A DNA stretch of 34,721 nucleotides, taken from assembly GCF_030604225.1 (NCBI RefSeq), contig NZ_JAUVWH010000014.1, positions 1 through 34,721 on the forward strand, read 5' to 3'. Positions 11,771-27,474 of the stretch are shown here, one piece after another. This DNA comes from Geoalkalibacter sp. (GTDB taxonomy: Bacteria > Desulfobacterota > Desulfuromonadia > Desulfuromonadales > Geoalkalibacteraceae). Position numbers and translations under genes: made by a program. The first letter of the stretch is position 1, and every line of letters starts with the position of its first letter. The notes below the pieces were generated by a model, which saw only the letters and a program-made list of their open reading frames with translations, had not been told where the DNA came from and made no database searches.

Positions 11771-14266
11771 ATGTCTGAAGATCTGCATATTCTGCTCGTC
11801 AACAATGCCTCGGAAACCCGCCTTCAGCTGCGATCCCTGCTGGAAAAAGCCGGGCACCCGAATATCTCGGAAGCCGCGTGCAGCCGCAGCGCTTCCCAAA
11901 TTCTGCGCAGCCTTCCCGTCGACCTGCTGATCACCGAAATTGATATCCCCGGCCTCGATGGCTGGCGCCTGTCACGCCTGGTGCGCTCCGGGGTCTTCAA
12001 GTGCAAAAGCGACATTCCCATCATCGTCGTGGCCAAAACCTGGTGCGAACGCATTGCCGAAACCACCGCCCGCGAATTCGGCGTCAATGCCATGCTTGCC
12101 ATGGATCATCTGCCGAAACTGGGACAGGTGGTGCGCAATTGCCTCTCCCTTCCCGAGGAAACCCTGCGCAGACCACGCGCGCTGGTCGTCGAGGACAACC
12201 CCGACACGGCGGAAATCGCCCGACGCGTGCTGCGTCATCGCTTTGAGGTGGAAATCGCCGTCGACGGATCGGCGGGCTTGGCGGCCTGGACGGCACGCCG
12301 CCATGATCTGGTGCTACTCGACACCATGCTGCCCGAAATGTCGGGGCCCGAGGTGCTGCGGGAAATCCTCAGAATCGACCCTTCCCAACCGGTGGTGGTC
12401 ATGACCGCCTTCAGTTCCGTGGATCTCGCCGAGGATCTCATGCTCGAAGGAGCGGCGGATTTCATCGCCAAGCCGTTTCTCGCCGATCAATTGCGCCGCG
12501 TTTGCGAACTCGCCACCCGCCGCGAGGACTATCTGGTGAGCAATGCCCAGTTCGCCTCGCGTGTCAACCAGGTCAAGGAGCGCACCGAGGCCTACCGCAA
12601 GATCTCCGAGGATCACCAGCGCCTGCTGGACAACCTCAACACCATTGTCCTCGAGCTCGATCAAAACGGCGAAATTCAGTTTCTCAACCGCGCCTGGACC
12701 AAACTGACGGGGTTTTCCCTCGCCTACTCCCTGAACAAACCCCTGGCGGCCTTCCTGCCCCAGGATGTCGAAGGCGTCGCCAAATGGCTCCAGCCGCTGC
12801 TGGAGGGGAAAATTCATGAATCCCAGGGCGAATTGCGTCTGCTCGACAAGCAGGGAGAAGCCCTGTGGGTCGAATACCGCCTCGGCGCCGTGCCATCCGC
12901 GGACCGCGGCCGCGCAATCTTTGGCTGCCTCGATGATATTTCCGAGCGCAAGCGCACCCAGAAGCAGGTCGAATACCTGAGCATGCATGATTCCCTGACC
13001 GGCCTGCACAACCGCCATTATTTCGAGAATGAACTGCGCCGCCTGGCCGCCACCAGCGCCCGAGGCAAGGGCAGTCATGCCCTGGTGTTTCTCGACCTCG
13101 ACCATTTCAAGGTGATCAACGACAACTTCGGCCATCAGCACGGCGATGCCCTCTTGCGCGAACTTGGCCAACTGCTCAAATCGCGCTTGCGCCTCTCCGA
13201 TACCCTGTGCAGGCTGGGCGGCGACGAATTCGGCATCCTCATCCCCGCCGCCGACAAGGCCCAGGCCCGCCTGGTGGCCGAGGAAATGACGCAGCTCATC
13301 CTCGGACATCGCGTTGAAATCGACGGCCAGGAAACCGGCCTGAGCTGCAGCGTCGGCATCAGTGAAGTCAACGGCAAATTCGCCAACCCCGAGGAATATT
13401 TCAAGCAAGCCGACATTGCCCTCTACGTGGCCAAGCGCCGGGGCCGCAACCGCATTCAGATCTACGACCCCAAGGACAAGGAAAACGACGAGTTGCGCAC
13501 CAGCCTCGATTGGGTGCGCCGCTTGCGGCGCGCGGTGGATGAGGACCGCCTCAAGCTCTATTTTCAGCCGGTCATGCACATCGCCAGCGGGAAGATCGTG
13601 CACTACGAGGCCCTGGTGCGCCTCGACCTGCCGGAGACAGGGATTGCGCTGCCGCAGGAATTCATTCCCGCCCTGGAACGGGCCGGAGAAATGGCGCTCC
13701 TTGACCATAGCGTGATCAGGAAAGCGATTCTTCACCTCAAGGAAACCCCCGAACTGCAGCGCGTCGCCGTCAATCTCTCCGCGCAGGCCTTCGGCGACGA
13801 GGAGCTCGTCCCCCTCATCGAAAAACAATTGCGTGACCAGGGTGTGGAACCTCGGCGCCTGATGTTCGAGCTGACCGAAAGCGCCAGCATTGCCAATATC
13901 GCCGCCACCCAGCGCATGATCAAGCAACTCAACGAGCTGGGCTGCGAATTCGCCGTGGATGATTTCGGCACCGGCTTCAGCACCTTCGGTTTTCTCAAGC
14001 AGTTTCCCGCCGAATACGTCAAGGTCGACGGCAGCTTCATCACCCATCTCGACCGTGATCCCATCGACCAGGTTCTGGTCCGTTCCATGAGCGAGGTGGC
14101 GCGCGCCCTCAACAAGAAAACCGTTGCCGAATTCGTTCACAATGAAAATATCCTCAATTTGGTACAGAGTCTCGGCATCGACTATGCCCAAGGCTTTCAT
14201 ATCGGCAAACCTCTGCCCCTGGCCGAGCTCCAATTCCCTCCAGCCCCCCTTCTCCAAATTAATTAG
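11771..14266 (+). CDS. REC-REC-PAS-GGDEF-EAL cyclic-di-GMP signalling protein
   Basis: Second REC canonical (VVEDNPD, LLDTMLPEMSG, MTAF, KPF); PAS; GGDEF motif (RLGGDEFGIL) with RxxD I-site (RLSD); EAL (YEALVRL, FELTES, VDDFGTGFSTF). Confidence 0.95.
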   Translation: MSEDLHILLVNNASETRLQLRSLLEKAGHPNISEAACSRSASQILRSLPVDLLITEIDIPGLDGWRLSRLVRSGVFKCKSDIPIIVVAKTWCERIAETTAREFGVNAMLAMDHLPKLGQVVRNCLSLPEETLRRPRALVVEDNPDTAEIARRVLRHRFEVEIAVDGSAGLAAWTARRHDLVLLDTMLPEMSGPEVLREILRIDPSQPVVVMTAFSSVDLAEDLMLEGAADFIAKPFLADQLRRVCELATRREDYLVSNAQFASRVNQVKERTEAYRKISEDHQRLLDNLNTIVLELDQNGEIQFLNRAWTKLTGFSLAYSLNKPLAAFLPQDVEGVAKWLQPLLEGKIHESQGELRLLDKQGEALWVEYRLGAVPSADRGRAIFGCLDDISERKRTQKQVEYLSMHDSLTGLHNRHYFENELRRLAATSARGKGSHALVFLDLDHFKVINDNFGHQHGDALLRELGQLLKSRLRLSDTLCRLGGDEFGILIPAADKAQARLVAEEMTQLILGHRVEIDGQETGLSCSVGISEVNGKFANPEEYFKQADIALYVAKRRGRNRIQIYDPKDKENDELRTSLDWVRRLRRAVDEDRLKLYFQPVMHIASGKIVHYEALVRLDLPETGIALPQEFIPALERAGEMALLDHSVIRKAILHLKETPELQRVAVNLSAQAFGDEELVPLIEKQLRDQGVEPRRLMFELTESASIANIAATQRMIKQLNELGCEFAVDDFGTGFSTFGFLKQFPAEYVKVDGSFITHLDRDPIDQVLVRSMSEVARALNKKTVAEFVHNENILNLVQSLGIDYAQGFHIGKPLPLAELQFPPAPLLQIN

Positions 14267-14391
14267 ATCTTGCCGAATTCCGCACATCTCAATACGCAAT
14301 TAAGACGTTTTTTTTAATAAAAAAATATGCTTTAATGCCAGGACTGTCTCACCTGACCTGCAACCGTTTCCTGGTTTCGGAGGAGATCTCC

Positions 14392-16197
14392 ATGGCGGAA
14401 TCCAACCCCCTGAGCACGGCATCCAGCCAACTCGACGCGGCCCTGGCCAAGAAGCCTGAATTGGGCGATCTGGTCGTGGAATATTTGGAAAGCATCGGCG
14501 TCGAATACATTTTCGGCGTGCCCGGTGGGGCGATTGAACCCCTTTACAACGCCATGGCCCGAAGCGCGCGGCGTGGCGGGTTGCGCCCCATCGTCGCCCG
14601 CCATGAAGCCGGCGCGGCCTTCATGGCGGACGGCTACGCCCGGGAAACCGGCAAACTCGGCGTGTGCTGCGCCACCACCGGACCGGGCGCGACCAACCTC
14701 ATCACCGGGGTTGCCTCGGCATACGCCGACAACGTTCCCATGCTGGTCATTACGGCGCAGACCGCCCTGCCCCAATTCGGCAAGCGAACCTTGCAGGAAA
14801 GTTCTTGCACCGCCGTCAATACCGTGGCCATGTTTCAGAACTGCACGCGATACAGCAGCCTCATATCCCATCGCGGGCAACTCGAAGGCAAACTGCTGTC
14901 GGCGATTCTCGCCACCCAAGGGCCGCCGGCCGGTCCCGCCCACCTGAGCATCCCCATGGACGTGCTGGCTTCGCCGCGCCGCCTGCGTCCCGATGAATAC
15001 AAGCCCCTGTTTCACAGCCTGCTCAATGTTCACGACATGACCAATCCGCAGGCCATCGATGCCCTTTTCGATGAAATCGAAAAATCTCACCACATCCTCA
15101 TTGTGCTGGGCGAAGACTGTGGCGACGCCATCAAGCCGATCATGGAATTCGCGGAATTGATCAATGCCCTCATTGTCAGCGGCCCAAGCGGCAAGCGCTG
15201 GGCTCCCCATGGGCACTGGCTCTATCGCGGCGTGTTGGGATTTGGCGGCCATGCAAGTGCCTTTCAAGCTCTCAATGACGAACGCACCGACTTGGTGCTG
15301 GCGGTGGGCACCCGCATGGATGACCTGACCTTCGGCAGCCTGAATCGCAACAAGAGCTTGCAGGAAAAACTGATTCAGATCGATCTCACCTCCGAGAACT
15401 TTCATTTGGCCCCCCTGGCGCGCCTGCATGTCTGCGGCACCATACAAACTATTTTTCGCACCCTGAAAGAACGACTTCCCAAGGAGCATCGGCAGCGCTT
15501 TCGCCTGGTCCATGACCGAGGTTCCCAGCCCCGCAAGGATGAAATGATTTCAGATACCTGGGAAAGGGATAGCCTTGCCCATCTCGCTCTCAACGAACCG
15601 GAGAAATATCGCGCGAACACCACCCCCATCAAGCCACAGCGATTGATGCGGGAGCTATCGGTTAGATTTCCCGCATCGACCCGCTTCATCATCGACGCAG
15701 GCAACAGCTGGGCCTGGTCGCTTCATTACCTGCTGCCAAAAAGCCAGGGATTGTATCGGAATGCCATGGGTTTTGGCGCCATGGGCTGGGCCATCGGCGC
15801 CTCCGTGGGCACTGCCTTCGGCTGCCCCGCAACTCCCGTGGTCTGCTTGACGGGGGACGGTAGCTGGTTGATGAGCGGACAGGAATTGACGGTGGCGGTG
15901 GCGGAAAAACTGCCGGTCATTTTTGTGGTGCTCAATGACGGCGCCCTGGGGATGGTCAAACACGGTCAGCGTTTGGGAGGTGCCGAACCCGTTGCCTTTG
16001 AACTACCGCCGGTCGATTATGCTCAGATGGCCCATGCCATGGGGGCTGCCGGAGAGGATATCGCCGCGGTTACGGATCTTGAACGCCTCGACTTCGAGGC
16101 CATCTGCCGCCGAGCAGGGCCGACACTTCTGAATATCCGGATCGACCCGGAAGAGGTGCCCCCCATGGGACTACGCATGAAAACCTTGGGGAGGTAA
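14392..16197 (+). CDS. Acetolactate-synthase-like thiamine pyrophosphate-dependent enzyme of unknown substrate
   Basis: IFGVPGGAIEPLYNAM, ARHEAGAAFMADGYARETG (catalytic Glu), TTGPGATNLITGVASAYADNVPML, TPP motif GDGSWLMSGQELTVAVAEKLPVIFVVLND. Confidence 0.88.
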   Translation: MAESNPLSTASSQLDAALAKKPELGDLVVEYLESIGVEYIFGVPGGAIEPLYNAMARSARRGGLRPIVARHEAGAAFMADGYARETGKLGVCCATTGPGATNLITGVASAYADNVPMLVITAQTALPQFGKRTLQESSCTAVNTVAMFQNCTRYSSLISHRGQLEGKLLSAILATQGPPAGPAHLSIPMDVLASPRRLRPDEYKPLFHSLLNVHDMTNPQAIDALFDEIEKSHHILIVLGEDCGDAIKPIMEFAELINALIVSGPSGKRWAPHGHWLYRGVLGFGGHASAFQALNDERTDLVLAVGTRMDDLTFGSLNRNKSLQEKLIQIDLTSENFHLAPLARLHVCGTIQTIFRTLKERLPKEHRQRFRLVHDRGSQPRKDEMISDTWERDSLAHLALNEPEKYRANTTPIKPQRLMRELSVRFPASTRFIIDAGNSWAWSLHYLLPKSQGLYRNAMGFGAMGWAIGASVGTAFGCPATPVVCLTGDGSWLMSGQELTVAVAEKLPVIFVVLNDGALGMVKHGQRLGGAEPVAFELPPVDYAQMAHAMGAAGEDIAAVTDLERLDFEAICRRAGPTLLNIRIDPEEVPPMGLRMKTLGR

Positions 16198-16215: not shown

Positions 16216-16252
16216 CGAGAAACGGCCAGGAAGGATCCCTGGCCGTTTCTCG
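16216..16252. terminator. Strong bidirectional hairpin between convergent TPP enzyme and citrate-synthase-like operon
   Basis: 15-bp perfect stem cgagaaacggccagg (16216-16230) / cctggccgtttctcg (16238-16252), 7-nt loop. Confidence 0.8.
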
Positions 16253-16263
16253 TTGAAACTGGA

Positions 16264-17091
16264 TTAAGGTTCCCCCGGCAAGGGAACGGGACGGGCAGAT
16301 GGACCCTGATAGTCGATGTCATCGCAGCGCATTGGAAGAAAGGATTCGGGAGGGCGCTCGAAGGTATCGACGTAACAGGCGGTGACACCGCTGGTCACCA
16401 GCACCGCGCATATTTGGTAGGCTTCCTGAGCGGTCAGCCCCTGGTCGGCAAGAAAGGCGCTGACATAGCCATTGAAATTCATGGCCTCGTCGAAATCCTC
16501 CAGCAGGACCTTCTCGATTTCCAGGGCCAAGGCAAGGTGTTCCCCAATGGAAAAACCCAAGCGCTTCTGGATGTTGTAAAATTCCGCCAACCGCTCATCG
16601 CCCTTGGCGATGGGCCGGGAATAGCCCATGAACTTCGGCTTTCCGCCATGCCGGGCACACTCTTGCGCCACGATATCCTTCGCGCTCTGGCCTTTTCTCG
16701 CCTCGGCGAGTGCTCGTTCAATAAATGCAAATCCTTCCAACAATGTCCCTTGGCCATAGGCACGGGAATCCGCGGCCAGTATCCCGGCGACCGTCGCTGC
16801 AACGACCGAGGAGCGCAGGGTGCCGCCGAGGGCGCCGATTTGGTTGCACCAGATGCGCGCGTCGGGCCAGCTCAAGCCGACGTGCATGGCCTCGAACCAG
16901 TCAGCCAGGGGTTTTTCCACGAGGCGGCCGGTGGCATTAAGAATCAGCACCTGAAAGAAGGAAACTCTGCCCATGAGATCCTTGTTCATCTCGAACCCAT
17001 GGCAGAAAACCCCCTTGCCCATGACCCATCCCCCCTTGCGGGAGAAAATGCGGCCACGGCGTTCGTCCCAGTAGCGGGTATCAGCAGGCAT
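16264..17091 (-). CDS. Citrate synthase / citryl-CoA lyase-fold protein 1 (catalytic residues not conserved)
   Basis: ~275 aa; CS-like C-terminal half (FMGYSRPIAKGDERLAEFYNIQKRLGFSIGEHLALALEIEKVL ... MNFNGYVSAFLADQGLT). SD gaggggg favours the ATG at 17091; overlaps the upstream stop (17081-17083). Confidence 0.7.
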   Translation of the reverse strand: MPADTRYWDERRGRIFSRKGGWVMGKGVFCHGFEMNKDLMGRVSFFQVLILNATGRLVEKPLADWFEAMHVGLSWPDARIWCNQIGALGGTLRSSVVAATVAGILAADSRAYGQGTLLEGFAFIERALAEARKGQSAKDIVAQECARHGGKPKFMGYSRPIAKGDERLAEFYNIQKRLGFSIGEHLALALEIEKVLLEDFDEAMNFNGYVSAFLADQGLTAQEAYQICAVLVTSGVTACYVDTFERPPESFLPMRCDDIDYQGPSARPVPLPGEP

Positions 17092-17911
17092 CGGCATCCC
17101 CCTCGATGACATAGTTCGCGTCGGAGGGAAACGGTAAGGCGGTCAAGGGCTTGTTGACCATTTCCAGGCCGTGGGCGAGCAGGCCGGGCGCTTGAAAATA
17201 CTGAAAAAGCCCCGCCCCGGCCCGCGGTTGAAAACCCATGTCCGCCAAGACCGCTGCCGCCACGCCGGGAAACAACCAGCCGATTCCATGCTCGCGAAGA
17301 GCTTCGGCGAAGGAACAGCCCCACCGCAACGCCTTGCCCGCGCCGGGAAGCCGGCTCAACTCGGTCGCCAGTTTGCCCGGCACCTCATCCACGCTGCCGA
17401 AGCGACTGCCGAACCCAGGAACGGGATGCCAATCACCCTGAGCCGGGCGCTGTTGTTCTTGAATCGCTTCGCGGCAAACGAGTCGCGGATCGCGCTTGGC
17501 CGCCTGGCGGAAAAACCGCATGGCATCCTCGACACAGCCGGCTCCCAGGTGAGTGCCGCCCAGGATGCTCAGGGCAATGGGCAGAATATGGGCGGGATTG
17601 GTTTTTCCGACACCGGCATGCATGGCCGCGCGGGTCGCCGGATGCCGGGGGCCGGGGTTGATCAGGCCGATCATCAACTTTTCCAGCATTCGGGATTGAT
17701 CGGTGGTGGGCAAATCACCCCTGAAGAGTAAAAACAGCACATCGACAAAGCTGCGTTTCCCCATCAACTCAAACAGGTCGTAACCATGGCAGCGAACCTC
17801 GGCTGCGATGTAGGGATTGTCCTCGCTGGGCCGTTCTTCCCAGATTCGGGTCGCGGGACGCTGAACGAAGGACTGCTCGCGACTGGTAATGTTCTCATGT
17901 TTGGATTTCAT
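17081..17911 (-). CDS. Citrate synthase / citryl-CoA lyase-fold protein 2
   Basis: GYDLFELMGKRSFVDVLFLLFRGDLPTTDQ, GGTHLGAGCVEDAMRFF, PGFGSRFGSVDE, GLLAHGLEM match the citryl-CoA lyase-like CS pattern; ATG directly after the TonB receptor stop (17914). Confidence 0.8.
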   Translation of the reverse strand: MKSKHENITSREQSFVQRPATRIWEERPSEDNPYIAAEVRCHGYDLFELMGKRSFVDVLFLLFRGDLPTTDQSRMLEKLMIGLINPGPRHPATRAAMHAGVGKTNPAHILPIALSILGGTHLGAGCVEDAMRFFRQAAKRDPRLVCREAIQEQQRPAQGDWHPVPGFGSRFGSVDEVPGKLATELSRLPGAGKALRWGCSFAEALREHGIGWLFPGVAAAVLADMGFQPRAGAGLFQYFQAPGLLAHGLEMVNKPLTALPFPSDANYVIEGDADAC

Positions 17912-17913
17912 GC

Positions 17914-20058
17914 TCAGAACCTGTAGCTGATTTCTGCCCAAACCTGGCGACCTTCGAGGGGATAGTCGCCGGGAATGACCGGGTTGCTCGGCTCACGCGC
18001 ATCCTCGTCAAAAAGGTTGCGCACCGCCAAAGCAACATCAAACATGCCAAAAGCCTGATTTCTTCTAAAAGTCACATCCACCAGGGAATAATTACCGATG
18101 GGACCGCGCGGGTCATCCGCGGCACGTTTGCGGCTGCCGAGCCATCGATATTGCGGACAAATGGACCAATCCGGAAGGAATTCCCAGTTTGCAGCAAGAT
18201 ATATTTTTTGACCGGGCGCGTCCGGAATTCTTTGCTTGCTATCCACGTCCTCGGAACGTTGCCAGGCGTAATGACCACGCAACCGCAAGGTTTCCAACAG
18301 TCGCCAATCGGCCTCGAATTCAAATCCGTGCCCATCCTGATCGCGGGCATTCCGCGCCGTCCGGGTTCCACCAGACGCGTCAGGCATAAATTCAATTAAA
18401 TCCCGGGCGCGATAGGCAAACAGGGAAAGGCTCGTTTGCAAATCGAACGTGGGCCGATAAGCAAAAGCGACTTCGAAGGTATCAATCGTTTCAGGGTTGA
18501 GATCGGGATTGCCGAGCGCCACCGGATTGTTCGTGGAGAATTGTTCAATGAATGACGGCGCGCGAAATGCCCGGCCATAGAGAATTTTGGTGGTCAGATC
18601 GTGCCGCGTTGCCCAAACCAGGGCAAGCCGCGGATTGACCGTATCGCCAAAATCCGAATAGTGATCATAGCGAACGCCAGCGGTCAGTTCCCAATTCCTC
18701 GCGAATTGCCATTCGTCCTGCAACGACAGGTACCAAACCGTTCGCGATGCATTGCGCAAGAAAACAAACCCGGTATTCGTAATGTCGGTCAACGTGCCGT
18801 CAACTTCGGGGGCTGTGCCGTCGATGACACCGGGACCAAAATTTTTTTCCTCTTTCGCCAAACTGAATTCGTACCATTTCATGCCGGCGCCCATGCGCCA
18901 GCGATGATCCGGCATGCCGGTATAAACCGCAGCGAAATCAACTCCGGCACCCGCTTCTTCCCCGGAAGGTTTGCCGATCATGCCCTCTGTGAACAACACG
19001 GGATTGGCGGACTCGGAAAAACTGATATTGCCGTCGCTTCCGATGGGAAGCCTGGCGCCCGGGGGAAAGGCGACAAACAGACTGTCGCTGTCCCGGTACA
19101 GGTAATGGACATTGGCGCTCAGATCCCAATCCTGGGCCAGATCCGAGGTCGCGTAAGTCAGGTCGATGAGATGCTGGGTCAGGTCTTCCTCGCCCACGGG
19201 GTCCAGGGCCAGCGCGCTGCCCGCCCCCAGCTCCGCATCCTGCTGCAGCCAGAGCCAATAACGCAGACGCCAGTTGTCGCGACTGAGGTTCACATGGGTA
19301 TCGAGCAACTCATAACGGGTGTTCAAGGGGCCGGGTGCCAGGGACGCATTGGTGGCGAAGGCGCTATCGAACAGGGTCTGCTGATCCGCGTCAATGCGCC
19401 GGTCACGGTCGCCGTCGCTGGTTTGCCACTCCAGGGAAAAGGCGATATCCCAGGCGCCATAGTGTTTGCCATGCTGCAGCCACAGATCCTGGGTATCGAA
19501 GGAGCCGACGCGCCCCCCGACCTCGGTGCCCTGAACGTCGGTCGCGTCCTTGGTAATGATGTTGACCACGCCGGCGAAGGCATCGGCGCCATAAACCGCC
19601 GAGCCGGGACCGCGGATGACTTCCACCCGGGCGATGGAACTTACCGGTAGACGAAATTGAAAAGGCCGACCTCCGGAAAAATGCGGGAAGGGAATGCCGT
19701 TCATCAGCACCAGCACCTGGGGATTGAAACTGGTGTGGATCCCGCGGATGGAGTAGATGGAATCCAGCCGCCCCTGGGTGGATGGCACCACATGCAGACC
19801 GGCCACGGTTTCGAGCACCTCGTCGAGATTGCGCGCCCCCATGGCCTTGATCTCGTCGGCGGTGATCACGGTGGCCACCGCCGGCGCCTTGTAAATCGGC
19901 TTGCGGCTGCCCGTGGCGATGGTAATGAACGCCTCGTCGCCGTAGAGATCCCGCATTTCCTTGATCGTCTGGGATTCGGCTTCCAACTCCTGCGCACCAG
20001 CCCACCAGGGCAAGGCCAGAGCCGCCATCAGCCCGAGATACATCAATCCCTTACGCAT
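17914..20058 (-). CDS. TonB-dependent receptor
   Basis: Signal peptide; plug domain (APAVATVITADEIKAMGARNLDEVLETVAGLHV...VEVIRGPGSAVYGADAFAGVVNIITKDA); C-terminal ...GRQVWAEISYRF beta-strand ending in F. Confidence 0.95.
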   Translation of the reverse strand: MRKGLMYLGLMAALALPWWAGAQELEAESQTIKEMRDLYGDEAFITIATGSRKPIYKAPAVATVITADEIKAMGARNLDEVLETVAGLHVVPSTQGRLDSIYSIRGIHTSFNPQVLVLMNGIPFPHFSGGRPFQFRLPVSSIARVEVIRGPGSAVYGADAFAGVVNIITKDATDVQGTEVGGRVGSFDTQDLWLQHGKHYGAWDIAFSLEWQTSDGDRDRRIDADQQTLFDSAFATNASLAPGPLNTRYELLDTHVNLSRDNWRLRYWLWLQQDAELGAGSALALDPVGEEDLTQHLIDLTYATSDLAQDWDLSANVHYLYRDSDSLFVAFPPGARLPIGSDGNISFSESANPVLFTEGMIGKPSGEEAGAGVDFAAVYTGMPDHRWRMGAGMKWYEFSLAKEEKNFGPGVIDGTAPEVDGTLTDITNTGFVFLRNASRTVWYLSLQDEWQFARNWELTAGVRYDHYSDFGDTVNPRLALVWATRHDLTTKILYGRAFRAPSFIEQFSTNNPVALGNPDLNPETIDTFEVAFAYRPTFDLQTSLSLFAYRARDLIEFMPDASGGTRTARNARDQDGHGFEFEADWRLLETLRLRGHYAWQRSEDVDSKQRIPDAPGQKIYLAANWEFLPDWSICPQYRWLGSRKRAADDPRGPIGNYSLVDVTFRRNQAFGMFDVALAVRNLFDEDAREPSNPVIPGDYPLEGRQVWAEISYRF

Positions 20059-20161: not shown

Positions 20162-21802
20162 TCAAAAACTACCGCTCTTTTCCACCGAATCCTCGAAACA
20201 CAGCTGTCCGTCATCCTCAATAGCCGCCTCCACAGGCACTTGGGCGACAACGGGCAGAGGGATGCGGATGCTGAACACGGAGCCTTGATTGAGCCGGCTC
20301 TGGACCTCGATGTGACCGCCCATCATTTCACAGAAACGCTTGGTGATGGTGAGACCGAGCCCCGTGCCCTCGAACTTGCGTGTATAGCTGCCGTCGACCT
20401 GACGAAATTCCTCGAAGATGATGCGTTGCTGCTCGGGCGAAAGCCCAATCCCCGTGTCGGTCACCTTGATGGTCAGGAGACGGGACGTTTGCATCACCTC
20501 CAGGCCGATCCGGCCGTCGCTGGTAAACTTGGCCGCATTGCTGAGAAGATTCAGGGTCGCCTGCAACAGTTTCTCCCGATCGATCTCAATTTTTCCTTCC
20601 GCCTTGACGGAGGTCTCAAGGGAGTTGCCGTTTTGCCGCAGGAGGGGTTGCACCGTATCGGCCGCCTCGCGCGCCAGTTCATGCAGATTGACGTTTTGCA
20701 ATTGCAGTTCCATGCGTCCGGCTTCGGCCTTGGCCAGGCGCAGAATATTGTTGATCAGGGAGAGCAGCCGCTCGGCATTGTGAATGACCCGCCGCAACTC
20801 TTCGGCATGCTCGTCCAGTCCCTCCATTTCAAGATCTTCCCGGACCACGTCGGCATACCCGATGATGGCTTGCAGAGGGGTGCGCAATTCGTGGCTGATG
20901 TTGGCGAGAAACTCCGACTTGTGCCGGTTTGCCGAGAGCGCGGCGTCGCGGGCTTGAACCAGTTCCTGGGTGCGGATGGCGACCTCGGTCTGCAGGATGT
21001 CCTTGTGCTCGCGCAAGCGGCGGTCGCGCTCCTCGAGGCTGGCCATCATGCGATTGTAGACCCCAGCCATGTGGGTGATTTCCGCCGGCCCGCTGAGATT
21101 GGCGAACACATAGGCGTTTTCCTCCTCGGACTTGCGCATCAGGTCGGAGAGTTGGGAAATCGGCTTGGTCAGCCGCTTGATACCGAGATTGAGGACCAGC
21201 AAAAGAACCAGGGAAAACGAGAATCCGATCAGCAGATTGTTGAAAAGGATTTGGAAATTGAGGGCATGGAGCGCTCGCTTGTTCATGCTGACATAGGCGT
21301 ATCCGAGCAATTCCCGGGGCAGCGGCGCCGGCTCGAAAGGCGAATCCAGGGCCTCGCGAAGCTCGGTGCCGGCGCCCGCGTACACGGGGGAAACGAAATA
21401 CCAGGCAAAGGGCGTCTCCGCGGCGATGACCGATTGCAGGGCGGCTTTGTCCCGTCTTTCTCGCGCCAACTCCAGGTTTTTCTCACCGAAAATCAGCAAG
21501 GGCCGGCCCTGATTGTCGAACACCCCGGCGCTGTCGACATTGGGAAAGGCCAGGATCGCCAGGAGCGGCTTTTCGGCATTTTCCGCGCTGCCGAACAGCA
21601 AGGCCAGGGCACTTTGGCCCGCCAGATGGCCGGTGATCTGCAATCCCTGGGCGATCATCTGATCCCGCGCCTGGGTGCTGCTGACCCAGGAGGTGGTCAA
21701 GGCCGAGGTCAGCGCCAGACAGAAAATCCCCAGCGTCACGATGCCGAGCAGGCGCGTGCGGAAACTGGTGAATTTTCTCATGGCGAAATGAAACAGGCTC
21801 AT
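20162..21802 (-). CDS. Membrane sensor histidine kinase (periplasmic CHASE8-like region, HAMP)
   Basis: N-terminal [20 protein letters not shown]-like region; His[27 protein letters not shown]; HATPase [31 protein letters not shown]. No receiver domain. Confidence 0.92.
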
Positions 21803-21815
21803 CGGTCCTCAACTC

Positions 21816-22763
21816 TCAACGGCTCGGAAAAACCAGATCGAAACGTTCCTGCTGACGCGGGGTGAAGCGCAGTCCAAGGTGAAAGGCGGTACGCAGGTTA
21901 ACGGCCAGTTGCAGGTTGGCCAAGGGCAGAACCGACGCATTGGCCTGGCCTTGGGTCTTGGTTGATGCCAGGCGCGCCAGGCTCTGCCCCATGGCGAAAT
22001 GGTCGGGAAACATGGAAAACAGGGTGCCGCGCTGGGCATGGGAGGGTTTGCTGGAAAACACCACCAACCCTCGATCCAGGGCGCCCTGCAGAACCAGGGG
22101 CAAGACCACCTCGTCATCCGCGGTGAGATTGTCGAGAGGCAGCCAGATCGCGTCGCTCAGCCCGCGCAGGGATTGCAGCAGCCTGCGGTATTCCAGCACC
22201 GCCTCGCGCAGCTCGGTAACGGGATAGGCCTGAAGCTTAAGGCCCCTTGCGCGGGCGGCGGCCTCGGCCAAGGGAATCAGCCAGGCCGTGGTCTCGGAAT
22301 AGACCACATGGACACGTTGCGCGCGCGGAACCAGATCCCTGAGGTGCTGAAAGAGCACCGCCGGATCGGGAGACAGGCTGATGCCGGAGAAGCCCTCGGG
22401 GGCCGTGGGCACCGCGCCGACAATGAGCGCGCGGTTGTTGTTGAGACTCTGGGCGGCCAGCGCCCCCTGCCGTCCCAAAGCAATAACCGTGTCAATCTTT
22501 TCCTGGGCAAGCCAACCCTCGAGGGTTCCAGGTTCCACCTGATCAGGCAAGGCGTTGGGGATGACGGGGCCGGAGGATTCGGATTCGATGCCGAGCAGAA
22601 TGTTTTGAAAAACCCCCAGGAAGGGTTCCTTGACATCGGGATAAAGCACGCCGATGCGGTTTTGCGCCACCGCGCCGCCGACCATGGGGATCAACAGCAA
22701 CAGCAGGGAAAGTACGAGCCGGGGGCCCGAAATTCGATGACGCAGGAACATGGATCTGCTCAA
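21816..22763 (-). CDS. ABC-transporter substrate-binding-like periplasmic protein (PF04392-like)
   Basis: Signal peptide; NRIGVLYPDVKEPFLGVFQNILLGIE...VIALGRQGALAAQSLNNNRALIVGAV...GLVVFSSKPSHAQRGTLFSMFPDHFAMGQSLARLA. Confidence 0.8.
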   Translation of the reverse strand: MSRSMFLRHRISGPRLVLSLLLLLIPMVGGAVAQNRIGVLYPDVKEPFLGVFQNILLGIESESSGPVIPNALPDQVEPGTLEGWLAQEKIDTVIALGRQGALAAQSLNNNRALIVGAVPTAPEGFSGISLSPDPAVLFQHLRDLVPRAQRVHVVYSETTAWLIPLAEAAARARGLKLQAYPVTELREAVLEYRRLLQSLRGLSDAIWLPLDNLTADDEVVLPLVLQGALDRGLVVFSSKPSHAQRGTLFSMFPDHFAMGQSLARLASTKTQGQANASVLPLANLQLAVNLRTAFHLGLRFTPRQQERFDLVFPSR

Positions 22764-23808: not shown

Positions 23809-25161
23809 GTGGCGAAAAAACCCAAAATCAGTGAACTGCTCGACGAGCGGGCCTGTGCCCACAGCGCGACGAAAAAAAGCGCCTGCAACACCCAGACACC
23901 GGGGGCGACCACCGGCGGCTGCGCCTTCGAGGGCGCCCAGATCGCCCTGTTTCCCTTCGCGGACGCCGCGCATCTGGTGCACGGGCCCATCACCTGTCTC
24001 GGCGCTTCCTGGGAAACCCGTGCCACCCCCACCAGCCACACCGGTCGTGACCTTACTCAGATGGGCTTCACCACCGCCGTGACCACCAACGATGTGGTCT
24101 TCGGCGGCGAAGACAAGCTGCGCGAGGCCATCGACTACCTCATGGAGCATTACGCACCCGCCGCCATTTTCGTCTACGCCACCTGCGTGACGGCGCTCAT
24201 CGGCGACGACATCGACGCGGTCTGCCGGCAGGCGCAAGCCAAGTACGGCATTCCCATGGTGCCGGTGCATGCCCCCGGTTTTGTCGGCAGCAAGAACCTG
24301 GGCAGCCGCCTGGGCGGCGAAGCGGCCTTGGCGAGCCTGGTCGGCACCCTGGAGCCGGAGACGACCACGCCCTTCGACATCAACCTGATCGGCGAATACA
24401 ACGTCACCGGCGATATGTGGCAGTACACGCCGCTGCTCGAGGAACTCGGCATTCGCGTGCTAGCGACCCTGAGTGGCGACGGCCGCATCCCCGCCATTCG
24501 CAGCGCCCATCGCGCCAAACTCAACGTCATCGTCTGCGCCAAGTCGCTGATCTCCCTCACGCGCAAGATGCAGGAGCAATTCGGCATTCCGTTCATCTCC
24601 CTGTCCTTCTACGGCAAACGCGACACCAGCAGCGGCCTGCTGGCCATTGCCGAGGCGTTGGGCGATACCGAACTGCTCGCGCGCACGCGCCGGCTCATCG
24701 CCCGCGAGGAGGCCGCCCTAGACGAAAAACTCCGGCCCTACCGCGCTCTGTTCCAGGGGAAGAAGGCGATTCTCAACACCGGGGGCAACAAGTCCTGGTC
24801 CATCGCCTCGGCGCTTCAGGATCTGGGCATCGAGGTGGTCGCGACCTCTGTGCGCAAGGCCACCGAGGCGGATCGGGAAAAAGCGCGGGAATATCTCGGG
24901 GAGAAGGGGATTTTGATGACCAATCCGGGCGCGGAGCAGGCGCGCATCATCGACCAGACCCGTGCCGACCTGCTCCTCGCTGGCGGCCGCAGCCTGTACA
25001 CCGCCATCAAGAAGCGCATCGCCTTTATCGACGTCAACCAGGAAAAAAAGAAAAGCTACGGCGGCTACCAGGGCCTGCTCAACCTGGCCGAGGATGTGAA
25101 GAATGCCCTGGAGAATCCCGTTTTCCGGATTGTCGCAACGAGGGCGCCATGGGAGAAATAA
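23809..25161 (+). CDS. nifE: Nitrogenase FeMo-cofactor biosynthesis protein NifE
   Basis: ACNTQTPGATTGGCAFEGAQIALFPFADAAHLVHGPITCLGASWE...VVFGGEDKLREAI...NVIVCAKSLISL; GTG start with SD ggaaagg. Confidence 0.93.
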   Translation: MAKKPKISELLDERACAHSATKKSACNTQTPGATTGGCAFEGAQIALFPFADAAHLVHGPITCLGASWETRATPTSHTGRDLTQMGFTTAVTTNDVVFGGEDKLREAIDYLMEHYAPAAIFVYATCVTALIGDDIDAVCRQAQAKYGIPMVPVHAPGFVGSKNLGSRLGGEAALASLVGTLEPETTTPFDINLIGEYNVTGDMWQYTPLLEELGIRVLATLSGDGRIPAIRSAHRAKLNVIVCAKSLISLTRKMQEQFGIPFISLSFYGKRDTSSGLLAIAEALGDTELLARTRRLIAREEAALDEKLRPYRALFQGKKAILNTGGNKSWSIASALQDLGIEVVATSVRKATEADREKAREYLGEKGILMTNPGAEQARIIDQTRADLLLAGGRSLYTAIKKRIAFIDVNQEKKKSYGGYQGLLNLAEDVKNALENPVFRIVATRAPWEK

Positions 25162-26441
25162 TTCGCAAGCCGCGCAAGCCCCTGCAGGTCAACCCCATCA
25201 AGCTCTCCCAGCCCATGGGCGCGGCCCTCGCATTTCTCGGCGTCAATCAGTGCATGCCGCTGATGCACGGCGCCCTGGGCTGCGCTTCCTTCACCAAGGT
25301 TTTTTTGACCCGACATTTCTGCGAACCCATCGCCATTCAGACCACGGCGGTGACCGATGTGACGGCGATTCTCGACGGCGGCGACTACAACATCGCCGAA
25401 TCCGTCAAGAACATCACCACCAAGGTCACCCCCCAACTCATCGGCCTGCATACCACCGGGCTTACGGAAACCAAGGGCGACGACATCCGCGGCGTGGCCT
25501 CACGCATCGACGTTCCCCTGGTGTACGTCAACACCCCTGATTTCGAGGGCGGCCTGGAGAGCGGTTGGGCCCTGGCGGTGAAGGCCATGATTCGTCAGCT
25601 GACGGCTCCCGCGAGCCAGGTCCAGCCACGCCGGTTGACCCTTCTGCCCCATGTGAGCCTTCAGCCCATCGAGGTGGAAAAACTCAAGGAATTCGTCGCG
25701 CTGTTCGGTTTCGAGGCCTGGGCCCTGCCCGACCTCTCCACCTCCCTGGACGGCTATCTCGGCGAGAAACAAGGCTCGCTGAGCAGTGGCGGCATCGAGG
25801 TCGCGGACATCCGCTCCCTGGCGCAAAGCCAAATCGTTGTGAGTATCGGCGAATCCATGCGCGGCTGCGCCGAGGCCCTGCGGGAGAAAAATCCCGCCAT
25901 GCGCCATCATCATTTCCCGCACCTGCAGGGCCTGGCGGCCACGGATGCCCTGGTGGCCATGCTGCTTGAGGAAAGCGGCCTGGAGCAACCACCGGCATCC
26001 GTCGTACGCTGGCGCAAACGTCTTCAGGACGCGCTCCTCGATACCCATTTCGCTCTCGGTCAAACGCGCTTTCTCGTCGCCGGAGAACCCGATCAGCTGG
26101 CCGGTGTCTGCCAGGCCCTGGGCGAAGCCGGCGGCCGGGTGCGCGTCGCCATCGCCACCGTTGAGTCCCCCCTGCTTGAGCAGGTGGTAGCGGAGAACAT
26201 CCTCGTTGGCGACCTGGAGGATGCCGAACACCTGGTGGACGACTACGACCTGATGATCTGTAATTTTCACGGCGAGGCCCTGGCGCGCCGCCATCACAAG
26301 GGGTTGATGACGCGGGGATTTCCCAACTGGGAGCAGATCGGCAACCAACTGAAGAATGACCTGCTCTACGAAGGAAGCTGCTATTTTCTTTTCGAGGCGG
26401 CCAATGCGGCCGAGGAGATGAGAAGGCACCGAAAGGACTGA
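25149..26441 (+). CDS. nifN: Nitrogenase FeMo-cofactor biosynthesis protein NifN
   Basis: RKPLQVNPIKLSQPMGAALAFLGVNQCMPLMHGALGCASFTKVFLTRHFCEPIAIQTTAVTDVTAILDGG; ATG at 25149 overlaps the nifE 3' end. Confidence 0.93.
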   Translation: MGEIIRKPRKPLQVNPIKLSQPMGAALAFLGVNQCMPLMHGALGCASFTKVFLTRHFCEPIAIQTTAVTDVTAILDGGDYNIAESVKNITTKVTPQLIGLHTTGLTETKGDDIRGVASRIDVPLVYVNTPDFEGGLESGWALAVKAMIRQLTAPASQVQPRRLTLLPHVSLQPIEVEKLKEFVALFGFEAWALPDLSTSLDGYLGEKQGSLSSGGIEVADIRSLAQSQIVVSIGESMRGCAEALREKNPAMRHHHFPHLQGLAATDALVAMLLEESGLEQPPASVVRWRKRLQDALLDTHFALGQTRFLVAGEPDQLAGVCQALGEAGGRVRVAIATVESPLLEQVVAENILVGDLEDAEHLVDDYDLMICNFHGEALARRHHKGLMTRGFPNWEQIGNQLKNDLLYEGSCYFLFEAANAAEEMRRHRKD

Positions 26442-26445
26442 ATCC

Positions 26446-27474
26446 ATGGCGGGCTATACGGATTGCATCCGCCGCTGGGCGGCCGACGCGCGCTACGCGG
26501 GCCACCTCGCCAATCCCGACGGCGTCGGTGAGGTGGGACTAGGCGAGGAAGAAGCGGGGCGACGCCTGGCCGTGCGCTTTGCGCTGCGCCTTCGCCAGAA
26601 CCGCATCGAACAGGTGCGCTACCAGGTCTTCGGCTGCGGCTTTACCCTCGCCACCTGTGCCGTGATGGCCCACCTGGCGGAAGGCAGCCGCTTGGAGGAC
26701 GCCCAAGGCCTGAACGCGGCCCAGATTGACGCCGTCCTGGAGGGATTGCCCGACGAACGAGGTTACTGCGCCACGCTGGCCGTCGAGGCCTTTCAAGCCG
26801 CCCTCGCCGCCGCCCGCACCAAAACCGGAACCCTCACGCGCAACCTACCCCAGGCCCCGGAGCATGGCGCCCGCGTTACGCTCTCCGATCCCCTCTATCA
26901 GACGCTTATGGCCGGCGAAGCGCCGCGATCGGTTCCGCCTGAGGATCGTCACCTCTTTGCCTGCCTGCTGGCCGTCGCGGCGCAGGAAACATCCCGGCCG
27001 TTCGTCGCCCTCGGCTGGACCGAAATCAACATGCAAGAGGTTTTGGACACCTTTTTCCCGAGGTTTGACTCGGCCCATTTTCGCGACCGGAGCGCTCCCG
27101 CCGAACGCCCGCTGCCTCAACCCAACGAGGCGGTGCTGCCCCTGCTGATGAACTACCTGCCGCAGGACGGCGACCGGCAACAGACCGCGCCGGCCGTGTG
27201 GCTCGCCAAAGCCATGGCCGCGCGCAGCGCCCATCCCGGCCACCTGTGGGTGGCCATGGGTTTGTTCGAGCGACCCGAGTTGACCGCCGCCATTCGCCGT
27301 CACCTGCCGGCCCTGGCCGCGGCCAACCACCAGGGCATGCGCTGGAAGCGCTTTGTCTTCAAGCAACTCTGCGATCTTCAGGGGGGCCTGCTGTGTCCCT
27401 CGCCGGATTGCGGGGTGTGCAGCGACTATCCCCTGTGCTTTCCTACTGAAGAGCCTCCGCGAAGCGCCGATTGA
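26446..27474 (+). CDS. NifU/IscU-like scaffold domain fused to NifQ domain
   Basis: N-terminal YQVFGCGFTLATCAVMAHLAEG...LPDERGYCATLAVEAFQAALA (NifU_N-like); C-terminal MRWKRFVFKQLCDLQGGLLCPSPDCGVCSDYPLCF with NifQ signature C-x4-C-x2-C-x5-C. Confidence 0.85.
   Translation: MAGYTDCIRRWAADARYAGHLANPDGVGEVGLGEEEAGRRLAVRFALRLRQNRIEQVRYQVFGCGFTLATCAVMAHLAEGSRLEDAQGLNAAQIDAVLEGLPDERGYCATLAVEAFQAALAAARTKTGTLTRNLPQAPEHGARVTLSDPLYQTLMAGEAPRSVPPEDRHLFACLLAVAAQETSRPFVALGWTEINMQEVLDTFFPRFDSAHFRDRSAPAERPLPQPNEAVLPLLMNYLPQDGDRQQTAPAVWLAKAMAARSAHPGHLWVAMGLFERPELTAAIRRHLPALAAANHQGMRWKRFVFKQLCDLQGGLLCPSPDCGVCSDYPLCFPTEEPPRSAD

What the first reader, a model, noticed from the sequence alone, without database searches (positions are those of the whole stretch)
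16264..17911. Overlapping pair of citrate-synthase-fold proteins that appear to have lost the canonical His/His/Asp catalytic set
Seen: two ~275 aa CS/citryl-CoA-lyase-like ORFs overlap at the stop/start junction, so translation is probably coupled. By-eye alignment to the classical LHGG / GFGHR / NVD motifs: protein 2 keeps the first His (GGTHLGAG) but has GFGSR (His to Ser) and LFP in place of NVD. Protein 1 has AYGQG (first His lost), GYSRP (second His lost) and NFN (Asp to Asn). Inference: an obligate hetero-oligomeric pseudoenzyme or a CS-fold enzyme with different chemistry. I recognise no named system with this architecture.
Basis: partly seen in the sequence, partly recalled or inferred. 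Interest (0 to 1): 0.75.

Follow-up and report, generated by a model that had tools for sequence, protein, structure and literature searches.

The report
Paired remodelled citrate-synthase-fold proteins
Two overlapping bacterial genes encode citrate-synthase-shaped proteins that have both lost the normal catalytic residues yet are kept as a pair in many bacteria, in genomes that also carry one particular thiamine enzyme and usually beside receptor and sensor genes, so they probably form an unstudied two-part enzyme that helps make a secreted small molecule.

Summary
Confirmed and extended. On the minus strand, P2 (17081-17911) and P1 (16264-17091 or 17112) overlap and follow a TonB-receptor gene. 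AlphaFold models (pLDDT 91-92) match citryl-CoA lyase (CCL) best. Both subunits lack the CCL His of GHR and Asp of NVD in every aligned orthologue (91 P1, 85 P2). P2 keeps the CCL third His (82/85); P1 instead has invariant Arg-Pro and Asn, and Cys at the third-His position (90/91). A scan gave 342 relatives; all 101 loci examined have both genes. dN/dS is 0.03-0.10. Nearby are a TonB receptor (58/62 long-flank loci), a ThDP enzyme closest to alpha-hydroxy-beta-keto-acid synthases (52/62), orphan binding proteins, histidine kinases, GGDEF-EAL regulators and sometimes an SDR, once fused to P1. The ThDP enzyme was found in all 24 P1 genomes of the class sample (3 as contig-end fragments) against 14 of 253 without P1. 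Most likely this is a neofunctionalised heteromeric CS-fold enzyme working with the ThDP enzyme to make a secreted, self-sensed molecule. Fold, residue loss, pairing and linkage are shown; heteromer, chemistry and product are inferred.

The parts
16264..17112 (-). P1, CS/CCL-fold subunit A (likely ATG at 17091; ORF opens at 17112)
17081..17911 (-). P2, CS/CCL-fold subunit B (ATG 17911; a longer TTG start is at 17941)
17914..20058 (-). TonB-dependent outer-membrane receptor, first of the TBDR-P2-P1 run; such a gene lies within about 7 kb in 58 of 62 loci with long flanks
14335..16197 (+). ThDP (TPP) enzyme, convergent with P1; nearest solved relatives BbmA/CsmA; catalytic Glu (HE) and GDG..N motif kept
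16216..16252 (.). perfect 15-bp inverted repeat between the convergent genes, possible two-way terminator
   Evidence: read directly; not reported by the terminator scan
20162..21802 (-). membrane histidine kinase (HAMP/HisKA/HATPase, weak sCache match)
21816..22763 (-). periplasmic substrate-binding protein (PF04392) with no ABC permease found beside it
11771..14266 (+). response regulator REC-REC-PAS-GGDEF-EAL (c-di-GMP), conserved neighbour

Best explanation
P1 and P2 are the two subunits of a heteromeric enzyme built on the citryl-CoA-lyase fold that has exchanged CCL chemistry for another reaction. It acts with the cluster's ThDP enzyme (probably joining two 2-oxo acids into an alpha-hydroxy-beta-keto acid) and, in many species, an SDR reductase, to make a small molecule. 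The product leaves the cell, is bound by the cognate TonB receptor and periplasmic binding protein, and is read by the histidine kinase and a c-di-GMP regulator, as a self-produced signal or metallophore. Shown: fold, loss of CCL residues, new invariant residues, strict pairing, linkage to the ThDP enzyme and TonB receptor. Inferred: the heteromer itself, the P1 Cys/Arg/Asn site being catalytic, the order of steps, the product, and its signalling role.
For: Fold. Residue loss, and new invariant R-P, N and C in P1 with His kept in P2. Pair in 101/101 loci on one strand. Purifying selection and P1-P2 r 0.89. ThDP orthologue in 21/24 P1 genomes at E<=1e-70 against 14/253 others (Fisher p 2e-19); the other three have it as fragments on the same contig as P1. 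In eight genomes where it is not beside the pair it lies elsewhere at 44-58% identity, against about 30% for ordinary acetolactate-synthase-type hits. P1-SDR natural fusion in L103. Tailoring genes in some loci: sulfotransferase, O-methyltransferase and lipid-A-type acyltransferase, condensation domain. TonB receptor directly upstream on the same strand in 47 loci. No ABC permease or CoA ligase among the recurrent gene families scanned.
Against: No product, assay or complex structure. The ThDP enzyme also occurs without P1 in 14 genomes of the class sample (two of these, G130 and G133, are incomplete relatives of P1 carriers), and in five such loci read in full the pair, binding protein and kinase are absent, so it does not need the pair. 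P1-ThDP tree similarity is only 0.44. The most divergent pair (L173) has no TonB receptor or ThDP gene in the stretch read, only sensor and binding-protein genes, though that genome has a ThDP homologue at a contig end.
Confidence: 0.5

Rival explanations
1. A non-catalytic CS-fold heteromer that binds CoA esters and regulates or scaffolds the ThDP enzyme or SDR.
For: All CCL catalytic groups but one His gone across both subunits; ThDP enzyme present in every P1 genome of the class sample; P1-SDR fusion.
Against: Invariant polar residues and Cys at the old active-site positions in P1; low P1-ThDP co-evolution (r 0.44); the ThDP enzyme occurs alone elsewhere.
Confidence: 0.2
2. A catabolic module: the TonB receptor brings in a scarce substrate which the ThDP enzyme and CS-fold pair break down.
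For: TonB receptors usually import nutrients (established knowledge); intact CCL-like relatives sit in catabolic-looking loci with CoA-transferase-like and transporter genes (L184/L185).
Against: No inner-membrane permease, CoA ligase or CoA transferase recurs in the families scanned; binding proteins are orphan and tied to kinases; sulfotransferase, O-methyltransferase and acyltransferase neighbours point to synthesis.
Confidence: 0.13
3. An intracellular acyl-CoA sensor pair feeding the two-component and c-di-GMP proteins.
For: Sensors are frequent neighbours; the divergent pair in L173 lies between binding proteins and a histidine kinase.
Against: Every P1 genome of the class sample also has the ThDP enzyme; no signalling or DNA-binding domain was seen fused to P1 or P2.
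Confidence: 0.1
4. Ordinary citryl-CoA lyase or citrate synthase.
For: Fold and weak family matches.
Against: GHR His and NVD Asp absent in all aligned P1 and P2; P1 and P2 each form a clade apart from CCLs; the genome has a full-length citrate synthase match on another contig.
Confidence: 0.03

Closest known systems
Citryl-CoA lyase (Hydrogenobacter thermophilus CCL, PDB 6hxp; NCBIfam PRK06224; CSH module of ATP-citrate lyase)
   Same: Fold and length; P2 keeps the third His; P1 keeps a C-terminal Y-x-G-x-x-x-R segment like that of the CCL in L177
   Different: GHR His and NVD Asp lost in both; two distinct co-encoded subunits; P1 has Arg-Pro and Cys at catalytic positions; gene context unlike that of L177, which sits beside citryl-CoA-synthetase-like genes
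alpha-hydroxy-beta-keto acid synthases CsmA/BbmA (PDB 8x3z, 8x3x), for the neighbouring ThDP enzyme
   Same: Best sequence match in the PDB, 285 bits against 178 for the best acetolactate synthase
   Different: I found no report of a CS-fold pair beside CsmA or BbmA; the structure paper could not be read and is known only through a citing paper, PMC13307353
ATP-citrate lyase CSH domain with a proposed non-catalytic role (PMC10115795)
   Same: Precedent for a CS-homology module proposed to act allosterically through CoA binding, with H900 and D1026 at that site
   Different: There those residues are present and the module is one domain of a larger enzyme

Membership tests
Citryl-CoA lyase | CS-type fold of about 260 residues | tested here: met
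   AlphaFold plus Foldseek, best hit 6hxp for both
Citryl-CoA lyase | His of GHR motif | tested here: not met
   Arg in 91/91 P1; no His in 85/85 P2
Citryl-CoA lyase | Asp of NVD/NID motif | tested here: not met
   No Asp in 91 P1 or 85 P2
Citryl-CoA lyase | Third His (VAH/IAH) | tested here: inconclusive
   Kept in P2 (82/85), Cys in P1 (90/91)
Citryl-CoA lyase | Family model above cut-off | tested here: not met
   Best scores 50 and 95 bits against cut-offs of 193 or more
Citryl-CoA lyase | Citryl-CoA cleavage | not testable with these tools
   Needs an assay
Citrate synthase | His/His/Asp catalytic set | tested here: not met
[quoted passage not shown]
   Three TPP domains; conserved HE and GDG..N motifs
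[quoted passage not shown]
   Needs an assay

The most novel reading that the evidence does not exclude
A widespread, undescribed chemical-signalling (or metallophore) system in which a ThDP enzyme and a heteromeric CS-fold enzyme with a new Cys/Arg/Asn active site make a secreted molecule that is read through a TonB receptor, an orphan binding protein, a histidine kinase and c-di-GMP.
Probability: 0.3. Interest if true: 0.9.

Novelty: new variant of a known kind. Interest (0 to 1): 0.7.

Why it matters
A CS-fold lineage that replaced its catalytic groups across two co-encoded subunits would be a new reaction for one of the best-studied enzyme folds. The linked receptor and sensor genes would turn hundreds of proteins now matched only to 'citryl-CoA lyase' and 'acetolactate synthase' models into a recognisable biosynthesis-and-sensing module in Cellvibrio, Teredinibacter, Colwellia, Gallionella, cable bacteria and Desulfuromonadales, several of them in culture and open to direct test.

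Tried and rejected
Link to nitrogen fixation (nitrogenase-type genes lie at 24417-27474): rejected, since nifH is common in the class sample (195/271) and not found in some P1 carriers such as G063 and G127. Defence system: no PADLOC match for P1, P2, the ThDP enzyme or the TonB receptor. Plasmid-borne: no P1 match in PLSDB. RNA elements: only a tRNA. Possible P2-P1 fusion in L086: only an upstream extension of the P2 frame, which ends at its own stop. Literature: no paper in the held open-access library joined these terms; subscription papers are not held, so this does not prove absence. P1 found no PDB relative by phmmer, so its fold rests on the model and profile matches.

Full report
Observation. 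Two ORFs on the minus strand, P2 (17081-17911) and P1 (16264-17091 or 17112), overlap and directly follow a TonB-receptor gene. A GAGGGG sequence inside the end of P2 sits 7 nt before an ATG at 17091, which fits coupled translation. The convergent ThDP gene (14335-16197) is separated from P1 by a perfect 15-bp inverted repeat. The motif reading of the first stage is correct.

Fold and catalytic residues. P2 weakly passes the Pfam citrate-synthase cut-off; both proteins match NCBIfam citryl-CoA lyase models at a fraction of the cut-offs. AlphaFold models built on 58 and 60 sequences (pLDDT 90.7 and 91.6) retrieve Hydrogenobacter citryl-CoA lyase first. I aligned P1 and P2 with a genuine-looking CCL (L177, beside citryl-CoA-synthetase-like genes) and other CCL-like proteins. 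The GHR His is Arg in 91/91 P1 and never His in 85 P2; the NVD Asp is absent from both; the third His is Cys in 90/91 P1 and His in 82/85 P2. P1 also keeps R-P and N without exception, and its other invariant residues include P-D-x-R-x-W and a second Cys in the first set aligned. Such invariance at old catalytic positions speaks for a new function rather than decay; dN/dS to congeneric copies is 0.03-0.10.

Pairing and distribution. A scan of named genomes gave 342 loci encoding P1 relatives, the best 80 of which were kept: Gammaproteobacteria by title (Cellvibrio, Teredinibacter, Colwellia, Gallionella and others), Desulfuromonadales, Desulfobulbaceae, the cable bacterium Electrothrix, Magnetococcales, and single MAGs labelled Nitrospirae or Chloroflexi. 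The nearest matches to the window are Desulfuromonadales. All 101 loci examined match both P1 and P2 on the same strand. P1 and P2 each form one clade apart from CCLs, with the most divergent pair (L173) at the base of both. Their distance matrices correlate at 0.89, against 0.86 for each with the TonB receptor and 0.37-0.44 with the ThDP enzyme. P2-like matches at about 30% identity that occur without P1 are, in the two loci read, intact CCL-like enzymes beside CoA-transferase-like and transporter genes.

Neighbourhood. In the 62 unique loci with at least 6 kb on both sides, a TonB receptor lies within about 7 kb in 58, the ThDP enzyme in 52, the GGDEF-EAL regulator in 34, the binding protein in 20, the SDR in 12, and histidine kinases of three families in 18, 13 and 12. 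Sulfotransferase, O-methyltransferase, lipid-A-type acyltransferase and condensation-domain genes appear in some. One Cellvibrio genome encodes P1 fused to the SDR. No ABC permease or CoA ligase was found among the recurrent families scanned.

Link to the ThDP enzyme. Among 277 genomes of the class sample, 24 have P1. Of these, 21 have the ThDP enzyme at E<=1e-70, against 14 of 253 without P1 (Fisher p 2e-19; related genomes are not independent, so the p-value overstates the case). The other three have it as a fragment on the same contig as P1. Eight genomes from other lineages where it is not beside the pair have it elsewhere at 44-58% identity. The reverse does not hold: some genera have the ThDP enzyme alone. 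[quoted passage not shown]

Mechanism. I commit to a heteromeric, neofunctionalised CS-fold enzyme acting with the ThDP enzyme and SDR in making a secreted molecule that is sensed through the TonB receptor, binding protein, kinase and c-di-GMP (0.5). Shown: fold, residue loss and replacement, pairing, linkage. Inferred: heteromer, chemistry, product, signalling. The absence of a permease favours sensing over import, but a metallophore is possible.

Verdict. As a protein family it is a new variant of the CS/CCL superfamily; the whole module may be new, a judgement limited by an open-access-only literature search.

Noticed in passing
window 24417-27474 (+): Nitrogenase component-1-type (Oxidored_nitro) gene followed by a protein with NifU_N and NifQ domains, near the cluster; similar flanking genes occur in L032 and L035. 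No general nif link.
   Followed up: partly
L174 4509-5405 and the following ORF to about 6400: A second tandem pair of CCL-like proteins with other altered motifs (GLGQP; GVSGL), beside aldehyde-ferredoxin-oxidoreductase-like and CoA-transferase-like genes; a separate clade in the tree.
   Followed up: partly
L103 9956-11536: Natural fusion of P1 with a short-chain dehydrogenase in Cellvibrio sp. UBA7671.
   Followed up: yes
L180, L181, L182, L183, L186: Relatives of the ThDP enzyme (42-48% identity) standing alone, without the CS pair, binding protein or kinase.
   Followed up: partly
L173 5594-13420: Most divergent P1/P2 pair, set between extracellular binding-protein-like genes and a dCache histidine kinase, with no TonB receptor or ThDP gene in the stretch.
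   Followed up: partly
L064 7850-8470 and L070 4232-6565: YfiR/HmsC-like DUF4154 domains near the pair or fused to the cluster's kinase in gammaproteobacteria.
   Followed up: no
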